From NCBI GenBank assembly GCA_009733575.1, contig ML770111.1, positions 1 through 19,360 on the forward strand: DNA of 19,360 nucleotides. The letters are read 5' to 3'. Shown in pieces: positions 16,061-19,360 of the stretch. The notes under the pieces were generated by a model. The model saw only the letters and a list, made by a program, of their open reading frames with translations. It did not search any database and was not told where the DNA came from. The DNA is from Gymnopus androsaceus JB14 (Eukaryota; Basidiomycota; Agaricomycetes; Agaricales; Omphalotaceae). The position numbers and the translations under genes were made by a program. Numbering within the stretch: the stretch's first letter is position 1; every line of letters starts with the position of its first letter.

Positions 16061-16690
16061 GGCTTTACTATTACCTTTAACCATCCGCTTCCTCTGTAAA
16101 GCTACTGGTAGCGTGTACATGTATACCCACGCTGATATTGTTGTATTACTATACTGATGTATGTAGCAGTACACTGCAGTTGACTATACATGATAATCCT
16201 GCTTTCTCATGGTTGAGCTATAGTATAAGGTTTTTGCGCCATTAAGCATTGTTCATGCAAGTGAATACTAGAGCATAAAAGTGCATGAAATTGTCTAATC
16301 TGGGAAAATAATGCTGTTTTTATTGAGGGACGTGGATAATGGACCTAACTTTGCATACATGATCTGTATAATCTTGCCATGATTGACAAATTTCGCACAT
16401 GTTTTGCATTTTTTTTGACTACTTTTAGTCAATTTCTAGCAACTTTTGCATATGTAGGTTTTCCTGATGTAATGTTTTCAGTATTCTAAGTATTGGCCAT
16501 GTGAAGCCCAAGTAATACTATAGTGTTATTCAAGTACTATTAGTGTTGGCCTTGTATGTAGAGTAGTACAACTGAGAACAATGATATTGTGGTATTTTAT
16601 GATTATTTTGTTTGTGAGTAGTATCAGTAAAACAATTCAAATGTATGGAGTAGAATTGAATGAAGCCCTGATGGACAACATTCCCATGAA
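16061..16690. other. AT-rich gene-free stretch
   Basis: No gene or RNA recognised. Short related tracts such as AGTACTATTAGTGTTGG and AATACTATAGTGTTATTC occur around 16514-16550 but do not form a delimited element. Confidence 0.35.
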
Positions 16691-16810
16691 ATCCACAGTA
16701 ATCCACAGTGATCCACAGCATTCCACAGCATCCCACAGTTCTGTACAGAGGGTACCTTGCTATGGGTGCTGTGGACAGTTCTGTGGGTTCCTCTGTACAG
16801 AACACCCATG
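16691..16810. repeat. 10-bp tandem repeat (WTCCACAGYR) with inverted partner
   Basis: Five direct copies with exactly 10-bp spacing: ATCCACAGTA, ATCCACAGTG, ATCCACAGCA, TTCCACAGCA, TCCCACAGTT (16691-16740). They run into CTGTACAGAGG. After about 25 bp the complementary motifs follow (GTGCTGTGGACAG, TTCTGTGGG, CCTCTGTACAGAAC up to about 16803), so the block as a whole can pair with itself. The 10-base step equals one DNA helical turn. No coding sense is supported. Confidence 0.75.
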
Positions 16811-16895: not shown

Positions 16896-17225
16896 GATCA
16901 TCAGAAAAAACTGTTTTGGGCCCAGGAGGTTTCAAGGCAACCTGAGGCATCCTAGTTGGCCCAGGAAAAAGGGCAAAACTTTGGACACCTCAGGTATCCT
17001 AGTCATCCTAAGTGTCCTGGAACATCCTGAGACATCCTAGGACATCATGCCCCAGGATACCCTCAGGACATCCCAGGATGTCCTAGGACACCTAGGATGA
17101 CTAGGATACCTGAGGTGTCCAAAGTTTTACCCTTTTTCCTGGGCCAACTAGGATGCCTCAGGTTGCCTAAGAGGCCTAGGAGACCTCAGATCTTCCTGGG
17201 TTCAAAACATTTTTTGGTGATGATC
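16896..17225. repeat. Large hairpin with 84-bp near-perfect arms built of CATCCTAG/CTAGGATG repeats
   Basis: 16935-17018 and 17085-17168 are inverted copies that differ at only two of 84 positions, with a 66-bp loop. Pairing continues, less exactly, outwards to GATCATCA at 16896 and its complement ending 17225, with about 20 extra bases in the right arm. The loop and inner arms are themselves made of TCCTRRGACA-like units at about 10-bp intervals (TCCTGGAACA, TCCTGAGACA, TCCTAGGACA). No protein is encoded and no target duplication was identified. Confidence 0.85.
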
Positions 17226-17286
17226 TGGAAAACATTGAGAAGACTGGAGGTAAATGCAAGAGCTGCAATAGTTAAATATGAGTGGT

Positions 17287-17680
17287 GAACTGTTTAATAA
17301 GTGCTGTTTAGTTAATCTCTTGAAATGATCCTATAATCAGTGTCTTTAAACAGGAACTTGAAAGGTGCATTTTTGTTGTTTAATGGTTTAATTTAATAGT
17401 GACTGAATGGGATTGAATGGGCCATTTAAACAAACCTGTAGCACTGTTTAGTGTGCTGCTGCAAAGGTATGTTTGATTTGTTCAATCCACAGTTGCCAAC
17501 CAACTTATGGTTTGTTTAATAGATTGTTTAATGTCTCAAGTCTTCATCTAATGGCTACCTTCCAACCTCTGTTTAAAGATTCTGTTTAGTCATTACATGA
17601 GGGACTTGTTTAATACACTGTTTAGTGGTTTTATTCTGTTTAATAGAAAATGGTTATGACCTTTCATGTTTAAAGTATAC
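17287..17680. repeat. Dense cluster of TGTTTA[AG] motifs
   Basis: About fourteen copies of TGTTTA (mostly CTGTTTAAT or CTGTTTAGT, two on the opposite strand as TTTAAACA) lie within 400 bp, at irregular spacing of roughly 10-60 bases. There is no open frame. It could be a protein-binding array, a subterminal region of an unrecognised transposon or a decayed satellite. TGTTTA is also the core bound by forkhead factors, but no host gene is adjacent. Confidence 0.6.
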
Positions 17681-17840
17681 TCATACTTTTATAGGGTGCA
17701 CAGTTACTTGTAGTAAACAAGTGCCTCAGAAATTCAAATCTTATGCAATACTGTAATGGATAAGGTCTGAAATAATCCATTTAGCTCAAAACATAGTGTA
17801 CTCTTGCTCAGGAGGGTCTGGGAGCTCCAGGGGCCTGCAT

Positions 17841-18405
17841 TCACACTGCCAATAATTATGCTTCAGTCTGAACTGAAGCATTGTGGGAAATTATTTCAGT
17901 TGCTGCTTGTACTTTTTTTGTTTGGAGCATTATGGAAAATAAATATTTTATAACTAAAGAAGTAAATACACTCAGACCAATTGAAGTTTGAACCATCCAC
18001 AAAAAAGAATGTTTCTCCAAAATGTCATTTTTCAGACAGCAATCAGTTTCAGCTGGACCAAAAATATAGATTACTGAAGCCATCTGAAGTATTTGTTTTT
18101 AGGACTGCTGAAACAGTGACAACTACCATTTCAGCTGACCTCAAATGAAGTACTTCGGCCAGCTTCAGTAGTGTATATTTTTGGTTCAGCTGAAATGAAT
18201 TACTTCATGTCCTGTTTGAAAAATGTTGTTTTGGAAATTCACAGAAAGTCTGAACTTCAAATGGTCCAAATTTATTTCCTTCTGTAGTTCTATAAAATAT
18301 TCATTTTCTGTATTCCTCTGAAATAGTACATCTCCCTTATCCATTGAAATAATTTATATCCCACAATGCTTCAACCAGACTGAACTATAACTATTGGCAA
18401 TGTGA
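17841..18405. mobile_element. 565-bp foldback MITE, no clear target duplication
   Basis: The left end TCACACTGCCAATAATTATG is matched, inverted, by the right end, which reads TCACATTGCCAATAGTTATA on the other strand. Pairing continues inward through TTCAGTCTG, GAAGCATTGTGGGA, AATTATTTCA, AATATTTTATA, TTGAAGTT, TTTCAGCTG and ACCAAAAATATA to a centre near 18125, so nearly the whole unit is one long imperfect palindrome. TTCAGCTGA and GAAGTA motifs recur inside. No coding capacity. The outermost boundary is uncertain by a few bases because the flanks give no matching duplication. Confidence 0.72.
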
Positions 18406-18552
18406 TTGTCATGGATGGGAACGGAACATTATATATATTTAACTCAATGGGAAGGTACGTAAGACACTGGTACATATTCTCAATGGCACCGTGTAATAGT
18501 CCTGTCTGGTAGATCGGCTTTCCTTAATTACCTCTCGATTGCAACCTGCGAG

Positions 18553-18614
18553 ACCGTCTGTAAGGCGATTAGTCTTGGTCAAACATTTTAAATCATCCAC
18601 TGACCAGCGGAATC
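18553..18614 (-). repeat. Vestigial eighth repeat unit and intron downstream of the peptide gene
   Basis: On the minus strand, just after the stop codon of the repeat-peptide gene, GATTCCGCTG is followed by GTCAGT. An intron-like 47-bp segment (18604-18558) with CTAAT and TTACAG comes next, then ACGGTCTCGCAG/GTTGC. This reproduces the end of a normal repeat exon, an intron and the start of the next repeat (GACGG...GCAG/GT) with an internal deletion. It is either a relic of an additional repeat exon or an intron in the 3' UTR. Confidence 0.6.
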
Positions 18615-19253
18615 TTAATTATAGCCACCACGGCCGTCTATAAAATGATCAGCTTTGTTCAAATGTTCAAATCCTTCTTCTATCACTTACCTGCTGCGTC
18701 CTCAGCTCGAACGCGATTATAGCCACCACGACCATCTTTTAGAAGGTTAGTCTAGTCTCAATATTGAAATCCCCTCAGCGCTGACCTGCTATTTCCTTGG
18801 CACGGACGCGATTATAGCCACCACGGCCATCTATAAAATAGTCAGCCTTGTTCGAACATTATCCTTCTCTATCACTTACCTGCTGCGTTCTCAGCTCGAA
18901 CGCGATTGTACGCACCACGTCCGTCTGCTATATCGTCAGCACGAACACGGTTGTAGCCACCACGACCATCTGTAAAATGGCCCTCAGCCTTGCTCCAACC
19001 TCGGCACTTATTCTCACCAACCTGCTACATCGTCAGCACGAACGCGATTGTAGCCGCCACGTCCGTCTGCTACATCGTCAGCTCGAGCACGGTTGTAGCC
19101 ACCACGGCCATCTATAAAAATGGTCAACCCTTTTTCGAACTTCCTATGTCAGAGGCCCTCACCAGTTATGTCTTCAGCGCGAATACTGAGACCATGGACA
19201 GTGGTTATAAGCCACAGCAGAGGGATGATTTGAACTATGGAGATGAGTCGCAT
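18615..19253 (-). CDS. Secreted repeat-peptide precursor, seven DGRGGYN cores, six exons
   Basis: Minus-strand exons: 19253-19163, 19111-19022, 18969-18880, 18830-18786, 18735-18691 and 18637-18615. Introns are 49-53 bp, all GT..AG and all phase 1. The spliced frame is 384 bases and encodes 127 residues. Exon 1 starts at an ATG in good context (AAGATGCG) and encodes a signal peptide (MRLISIVQIIPLLWLITTVHG), then LSIRAEDIT. The rest is repeats of 15 residues: core DGRGGYN (once DGRGAYN), spacer RVRA[DEK][DEN]xA. The seventh core is followed directly by TAA. Cores are almost invariant while spacers vary, the pattern of alpha-factor or Kex2-processed repeat precursors. There is no KR/RR, but every core is preceded by [VIA]-R-A, so cleavage after that Arg (or R-x-R) is inferred. 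No cysteines occur. A TATATT-like sequence lies about 35 bases upstream (plus-strand 19286-19295). Function is unknown: signalling peptide, RiPP precursor and structural secreted protein all remain possible. Confidence 0.85.
18637..19111 (-). repeat. Tandem exon-intron units encoding the peptide repeats
   Basis: Six complete 45-bp repeats occupy four exons: two double exons of 90 bp, then two of 45 bp. Each exon opens with AT after the acceptor and closes with GCAG before the donor. The introns at 18831-18879 and 18638-18690 are clearly duplicates: both begin GTAAGTGATAGA and share GAACAA[GA]GCTGA and ATTTTATAG. The intron at 19112-19162 shares GTTCGAA and the ATTTTTATAG end. Hence exon plus intron was copied together, and the double exons reflect intron loss or in-exon duplication. 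Confidence 0.85.
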
Positions 19254-19360
19254 CTTGACTTTAGTGAGTGTTGGAATATCAAAGGTAAATATATTCTATC
19301 GAACTATACATGGAACGCTTTCTCGTAGTCTCCACTTGTTTGTATCACCATCCCATGCAC
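19254..19360 (-). promoter_or_regulatory. Upstream flank of the repeat-peptide gene, to window edge
   Basis: The minus strand above the start codon contains AATATATTTA (plus-strand 19286-19295) about 33-42 bases from the ATG, a possible TATA-like element, and a CAACACTCACTAAAGTCAAG leader. Only about 107 bases are available, so regulation and neighbouring genes cannot be judged. Confidence 0.3.

What the first reader, a model, noticed from the sequence alone, without database searches (positions are those of the whole stretch)
18615..19253. Unrecognised secreted precursor with seven DGRGGYN peptides
A six-exon gene reconstructs without a single stop or phase clash into signal peptide plus seven near-identical heptapeptide cores, the last ending at the stop codon. 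Constant cores, drifting spacers and a C-terminal end on the core itself are what one expects if the cores are the released product. Each core holds one Tyr and an Arg flanked by Gly. This could be a new fungal peptide hormone, pheromone-like or RiPP family.
Basis: partly seen in the sequence, partly recalled or inferred. Interest (0 to 1): 0.93.

Follow-up and report, generated by a model that had tools for sequence, protein, structure and literature searches.

The report
Intron-split mushroom multi-peptide precursor gene
A mushroom-fungus gene, absent from the large protein database searched, carries seven near-identical copies of a short peptide behind a predicted secretion signal, and a protease would likely cut the peptides free; it resembles precursors of modified fungal peptides but lacks their usual cutting sites, so standard screens would likely miss it.

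Summary
The gene is there as read: minus strand, 19253 to 18615, six predicted exons, five phase-1 introns of 49-53 nt, a 127-residue protein. Seven cores (six DGRGGYN, one DGRGAYN) lie at an exact 15-residue period. Core codons change mostly silently; spacer codons do not. The core motif occurs nowhere else in the 83 Mb genome, which is very likely Gymnopus androsaceus JB14. In the same genome, four of 29 UstYa neighbourhoods hold repeat precursors, all with introns between repeats. One (contig C699) matches closely: signal exon, phase-1 introns, exons of one or two repeats. The best reading is a dikaritin-like secreted multi-peptide precursor. It fails two defining tests: no dibasic Kex2 site (Arg-x-Arg|Ala instead at six of seven sites), and no UstYa gene on its contig or the likely neighbouring one. 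An LTR retrotransposon starts 15 nt upstream of the ATG, so the gene may be cut off from its promoter. Absence of database homologues says little, because an UstYa-linked precursor of the same genome is missing too. Splicing, secretion, processing, cyclisation and function are inferred. New variant of a known kind.

The parts
19163..19253 (-). exon 1: ATG, predicted signal peptide MRLISIVQIIPLLWLITTVHG and a first spacer-like stretch LSIR|AEDIT
   Evidence: best 13-residue hydropathy 2.41; 15 of 22 nt identity of the exon end to a spacer
19112..19162 (-). intron 1, 51 nt, GTGAGG...TATAG, phase 1
19022..19111 (-). exon 2, 90 nt, cores 1 and 2
18970..19021 (-). intron 2, 52 nt, weak donor GTTGGT, phase 1
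   Evidence: the same donor GTTGGT in 5 of 9 modelled C699 introns
18880..18969 (-). exon 3, 90 nt, core 3 and core 4 (DGRGAYN)
18831..18879 (-). intron 3, 49 nt, phase 1
18786..18830 (-). exon 4, 45 nt, core 5
18736..18785 (-). intron 4, 50 nt, phase 1
18691..18735 (-). exon 5, 45 nt, core 6
18638..18690 (-). intron 5, 53 nt, phase 1
18615..18637 (-). exon 6, 23 nt, core 7 ending at TAA directly after Asn
18532..18604 (-). probable degraded eighth intron-exon unit (intron-like 18604-18558, exon-like 18557-18532, reads DGLAGCNRE)
   Evidence: 16 of 27 nt; weak on its own
19264..19268 (.). GTGAG, probable target-site duplication of the retrotransposon insertion
19269..19360 (+). start of an LTR of a multi-copy retrotransposon; the contig ends inside it; 15 nt separate it from the ATG

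Best explanation
This is a six-exon gene, by predicted splicing, whose protein carries a predicted signal peptide and seven near-identical cores, and a kexin-type protease would likely cut it after Arg (Arg|Ala) to release seven short peptides ending in DGRGGYN. Shown: the exon-sized repeats, the exact 15-residue period, the coding constraint on the core, the Arg-Ala dipeptide before all seven cores, and the layout shared with UstYa-linked precursors of the same genome. Inferred: splicing, secretion, cleavage at LSIR|A (site 1) and R[AV]R|A (sites 2-7), giving A[DEK][DEN][VIA][AT]DGRG[GA]YN peptides of 12 residues whose trailing R[AV]R must be trimmed, and possible Tyr cross-linking by one of the genome's unlinked UstYa enzymes. 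The array probably grew by duplication of exon-plus-intron units.
For: Exact period and cores. Silent-biased core codons. The motif is unique to this gene in 83 Mb. Hydrophobic N-terminus like those of three C5 precursors. Four of 29 UstYa neighbourhoods hold repeat precursors, and all four have repeats split by introns. C699 is the closest: first exon 97 nt (here 91); nine modelled introns, all phase 1, eight of 55 nt and one of 60 (here 49-53); of eight inner exons five are 78 nt, two 39 and one 42, that is two repeats or one (here 90 or 45). In the C5 precursor of L016 the stop likewise falls directly after the last core, where KR would follow. Site 1, LSIR|A, fits the published extended Kex2 motif LxxR, and P2 variation is tolerated (PMC8528282, passages). 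Kexin-type P-domains match at two places in the genome.
Against: There is no dibasic pair anywhere in the protein, and sites 2-7 (NR[AV]R|A) fit neither KR/RR nor LxxR. Simple Kex1 trimming of -YNRVR would stop at Val, so the mature C-terminus is not settled. No UstYa match lies on C728 or C877. There is no transcript, no peptide mass and no homologue. The core-versus-spacer contrast in constraint is borderline. The retrotransposon next to the ATG may have silenced the gene. The signal peptide was judged by hydropathy only. The layout comparison rests on splice models guided by repeat words and, for L039, on reading by eye.
Confidence: 0.66

Rival explanations
1. A true dikaritin (RiPP) precursor: the Tyr of each core is cyclised by an UstYa-type enzyme encoded elsewhere or on unassembled flanks.
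For: One Tyr in each of seven cores; a genome rich in UstYa (51 matches, 29 neighbourhoods by my grouping); the same exon layout as UstYa-linked precursors.
Against: No UstYa match on C728 (18.6 kb downstream) or on C877 (11.6 kb, likely upstream), whereas the ATGs of the four linked precursors lie 0.4-1.5 kb from the UstYa match; no dibasic site.
Confidence: 0.3
2. A secreted repeat protein that is not cut: a wall or matrix protein whose Gly-Tyr-rich units act in the intact chain.
For: No dibasic sites; constant period of 15 residues suits a structural repeat.
Against: Core constrained while spacers drift (borderline contrast); the layout matches peptide precursors with KR sites; the Arg-Ala dipeptide is kept before all seven cores.
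Confidence: 0.2
3. A gene that is dead in this strain: an intact reading frame cut off from its promoter by a recent LTR-element insertion, with a decaying 3' unit.
For: LTR starts 15 nt before the ATG; its first 92 bases are identical in the nine other copies inspected, which were among the best-scoring ones; probable degraded eighth unit.
Against: All five introns and all seven cores are intact; an insertion can leave or supply a promoter.
Confidence: 0.4
4. A minisatellite or repeat artefact, not a gene.
For: Minisatellites occur in this genome and trigger the same repeat scan.
Against: Silent-biased changes in cores, consistent GT-AG and branch-like sites, a signal-peptide-like exon and in-frame splicing of six exons; no copies elsewhere in the genome.
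Confidence: 0.04

Closest known systems
Kex2-processed repeat proteins (KEPs; Le Marquer 2019 PMC6339444, Umemura 2020 PMC7329392, Vogt 2022 PMC9769878; passages seen)
   Same: Predicted signal peptide, short near-identical repeats separated by spacers, product length (12 residues as predicted) within the commonest 9-24 class of Dikarya (PMC6339444, passage), no other domain found.
   Different: No KR, RR, KK or RK in the protein; Arg-x-Arg|Ala instead, so screens for dibasic sites between repeats would likely skip it.
Dikaritins (ustiloxin, phomopsin, asperipin; UstYa/DUF3328-dependent)
   Same: Repeated Tyr-bearing cores in a secreted precursor; the host genome is rich in UstYa genes and has UstYa-linked precursors with introns between repeats.
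   Different: No UstYa gene in the available neighbourhood, no dibasic sites, cross-link not shown.
UstYa-linked repeat precursor on contig C699 of the same genome (this work)
   Same: Signal-like first exon, phase-1 introns, exons of one or two repeats, short introns, donor GTTGGT in 5 of 9 introns.
   Different: Repeats ELGISF-KR and ELEKSF-KR, no Tyr in the modelled protein, UstYa match 1.5 kb away.
Ascomycete alpha-type pheromone precursors and basidiomycete CaaX pheromones (features partly recalled)
   Same: Small signalling peptides cut from a precursor.
   Different: No STE13 X-A/X-P register (five residues between Arg and the core), no CaaX end.

Membership tests
KEP (Kex2-processed repeat protein) | N-terminal signal peptide | tested here: inconclusive
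   Hydropathy only: best 13-mer mean 2.41 at residues 4-16, like three C5 precursors (2.28-2.60); no SignalP
KEP (Kex2-processed repeat protein) | near-identical internal repeats | tested here: met
   seven cores, period 15 residues
KEP (Kex2-processed repeat protein) | dibasic Kex2 sites between the repeats | tested here: not met
   no dibasic pair in 127 residues
Dikaritin RiPP | UstYa/DUF3328 gene in the neighbourhood | tested here: not met
   51 genome matches to PF11807, none on C728 or C877; the C877 link is itself inferred, and both contigs are short
Dikaritin RiPP | core residue able to be cross-linked (Tyr in the classical cases) | tested here: met
   one Tyr in 7 of 7 cores
Dikaritin RiPP | cyclised product | not testable with these tools
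   needs mass spectrometry
Ascomycete alpha-pheromone type precursor | STE13 X-A/X-P dipeptides between Kex2 site and core | tested here: not met
   read from the sequence: five residues, odd register, first pairs AD/AE/AK
Basidiomycete mating pheromone | C-terminal CaaX box | tested here: not met
   protein ends DGRGGYN

The most novel reading that the evidence does not exclude
An intron-partitioned class of fungal peptide precursors, in which each exon carries one or two copies of the product and the array grows by duplicating exon-intron units, is widespread in mushroom fungi but invisible to gene predictors and dibasic screens; this member has left the KR code for Arg-x-Arg|Ala and yields a new DGRGGYN peptide line that could be modified in trans.
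Probability: 0.3. Interest if true: 0.72.

Novelty: new variant of a known kind. Interest (0 to 1): 0.5.

Why it matters
Published screens for fungal peptide precursors look for repeats between dibasic sites in predicted proteomes (passages of PMC6339444, PMC7329392 and PMC9769878). This gene has no dibasic site, and its repeats lie on 45- or 90-nt exons. Neither it nor one UstYa-linked precursor of the same genome with introns between repeats was found in a database of 5.8 billion proteins. If the class is real, counts of such peptides in mushroom fungi are too low, and an exon-aware DNA search would find more. It also offers a simple system for how peptide arrays grow and end.

Tried and rejected
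Homology: the spliced protein found nothing at E <= 1 (25 candidates). A six-frame search of the own genome with the repeat part gave five matches: four in this gene, and a low-complexity repeat on C211 at E 4.45 that I rejected (its locus L012 was scanned). Pfam gave two weak matches, both below cut-off. A relaxed GYNR[VA]RA pattern found 17 places with up to one mismatch against 5 for the reversed control. Six of the 17 are this gene. The other 11 are on eight contigs; six of them share one recurring 20-base sequence (C219, C221 three times, C864 twice), kilobases apart where on one contig, so none forms a 45-nt array. A positive control failed: the UstYa-linked C5 precursor of L016, as I spliced it, is also absent from the protein database, so one search's negative carries little weight.

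Second copy or allele: the first DNA search scored only 40 of 539 candidates because of the LTR. Repeated without the LTR it found this gene alone (one candidate), and the likely upstream flank also matched only itself. An isoprenylcysteine methyltransferase-like gene on C877 was considered as a pheromone-maturation clue and dropped: the genome holds many such genes (50 six-frame matches) and this protein has no CaaX end.

Repeat scan: it needs three exact copies of a 5-residue word within 700 nt or 900 nt, and flanks of UstYa matches were mostly 1.5-2.5 kb, so shorter arrays and more distant precursors are missed. Of 31 UstYa loci (148,674 bases summed, overlaps included), 7 gave hits: 4 precursors (L014, L016, L039, L066) and 3 loci with one or two isolated words (L018, L042, L070). 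Two more loci (L074, L075) gave none, which makes 29 of 29 neighbourhoods. Of 15 control loci, 2 gave hits (L030, L048); L048 overlaps a TTGGGGTGACT minisatellite and L030 was not examined further. The splice models of L014, L016 and C699 were guided by repeat words. In L014 the modelled introns are 41 nt with weak donors, and the first two repeats were left unspliced because that stretch reads open. L039 was read by eye, and one of its repeats carries a stop.

Literature: the exact string DGRGGYN is in no paper of the held library. Searches for UstYa with basidiomycete terms, for Kex2-processed repeat proteins, for dikaritin with introns (20 of 6,216 papers listed) and for exon-per-repeat precursors listed no paper whose title or listed abstract start names the intron-between-repeats layout. 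Five papers were seen as passages only: PMC9769878, PMC7329392, PMC6339444, PMC8893723, PMC8528282. Supplementary tables of the KEP surveys could not be opened, so a listing there cannot be excluded.

Full report
Observation. The gene was rebuilt independently from the minus strand. It has six predicted exons between 19253 and 18615 and five GT-AG introns of 49-53 nt. All introns are phase 1 in an Asp codon, all have a branch-like [CT]T[AG]A[CGT] starting 15-18 nt from the 3' end, and all hit a stop if retained. The 127-residue product is a predicted signal peptide plus seven cores with an exact 15-residue period: six DGRGGYN and one DGRGAYN. The core DNA pattern occurs seven times in the 83.3 Mb genome, all here, and not in the reversed control. 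A DNA search with the gene finds no second copy.

Constraint. Counting distinct base changes across copies, the seven core codons hold 7 silent and 1 replacement changes (expected silent fraction 0.238, p = 2.7e-4). The spacers hold 5 and 7 (p = 0.25). The contrast between the two is borderline (Fisher p = 0.054). The introns align with shared blocks (no statistic computed), which fits duplication of intron-plus-exon units. Exon 1 ends in a spacer-like stretch (15 of 22 nt). A probable eighth unit lies decayed after the stop, so the stop probably arose inside a once longer array, directly after a core.

Organism. The closest named proteins to a gene on the likely neighbouring contig C877 are from Gymnopus androsaceus JB14. 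The contig lengths recorded for three sets of its paralogues (252,690, 97,729 and 78,139) equal those of C73, C258 and C314 of this genome. The window is thus very likely from the JB14 assembly: Omphalotaceae, Agaricales.

Surroundings. The contig ends 107 nt upstream of the ATG, inside an LTR that starts at 19269, with 15 nt between LTR and ATG. GTGAG precedes the LTR, and this is the only exact GTGAG-LTR start in the genome. One of 160 exact LTR ends is followed by GTGAG: C877:256-260, close to a contig start. By my reckoning a chance match among 160 ends is of the order of 15 percent, less if only contig edges count, so the pairing is likely and not proven. The flank so obtained has no in-frame ATG between a stop 75 nt upstream and our ATG. 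Of eight reading frames of C877 given to Pfam, one is methyltransferase-like and one endonuclease/reverse-transcriptase-like. Of ten of the window's 62 listed frames, two adjoining ones match histone deacetylase and no other passes a cut-off. No UstYa match lies on either contig.

Comparison within the genome. I grouped the 51 UstYa matches into 29 neighbourhoods and scanned fetched stretches of all 29 for peptide words repeated at least three times. Four hold repeat precursors: three on C5 (L014, L016, L039) and one on C699. All four have repeats on separate short exons, though two repeats of L014 stayed joined in the model. C699 is the closest match to the window gene: first exon 97 nt; nine modelled introns all phase 1, eight of 55 nt and one of 60; eight inner exons of 78 (five), 39 (two) or 42 nt (one), carrying two repeats or one; donor GTTGGT in 5 of 9. 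In L016 the last repeat ends KYA-stop where the others have KYAKR, the same way in which the window gene ends at GGYN. These models were guided by repeat words and have no RNA support.

Mechanism. By analogy with these precursors, Asn is probably at or near the C-terminus of the product and R[AV]R stands where KR would. All seven cores are preceded by Arg-Ala, with five residues between that Arg and the core. The first site, LSIR|A, fits the extended Kex2 motif LxxR, and Kex2 tolerates varied P2 residues (PMC8528282, passages); the other six fit only by the P1 Arg. Two kexin-type P-domain matches are in the genome. The expected products are 12-residue A[DEK][DEN][VIA][AT]DGRG[GA]YN peptides; how the trailing R[AV]R is trimmed is open. 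Cyclisation through Tyr by an UstYa enzyme in trans is possible. In the survey of Umemura only 103 of 1680 basidiomycete KEPs had a linked DUF3328 gene (PMC7329392, passage), so lack of linkage is common and points at least as much to linear peptides.

Novelty. By defining features this is neither a strict KEP (no dibasic site) nor a shown dikaritin (no linked UstYa), but it looks built to work like them. The gene is not in the protein database searched, and neither is an UstYa-linked precursor of the same genome, which points to an annotation blind spot rather than to a unique gene. I rate it a new variant of a known kind.

Noticed in passing
L066 and L073 (G000:C699; modelled gene 17117 to 18309, may run further): UstYa-linked repeat precursor with exons of one or two repeats (ELGISFKR, ELEKSFKR), nine modelled phase-1 introns, donor GTTGGT in 5 of 9.
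   Followed up: partly
G000:C5 650-692 kb (L014, L016, L039): Three UstYa matches each with its own intron-split repeat precursor (cores around VPEPDxxFGAKYTTLD-KR and IPDPDESFNNKYA-KR); the L039 one carries a stop in a repeat.
   Followed up: partly
G000, 29 neighbourhoods: Large UstYa (PF11807) set: 51 six-frame matches in this mushroom genome, 25 of 29 neighbourhoods without a repeat precursor in the stretches scanned.
   Followed up: partly
window 19269-19360 and many contigs: High-copy LTR retrotransposon (160 exact LTR ends); first 92 bases of the LTR identical in the nine copies inspected. The window's contig and C877 break inside it.
   Followed up: partly
L035 8425-9191; G000:C73, C258, C314 and others: Many isoprenylcysteine methyltransferase-like genes in this genome (50 six-frame matches) and among public JB14 proteins.
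   Followed up: no
window 16690-16739, 17051-17111; L035 2323-2973, 8111-8175; L048 170-300: Several minisatellites; TTGGGGTGACT units occur near methyltransferase-like genes in two places, L035 and L048.
   Followed up: no
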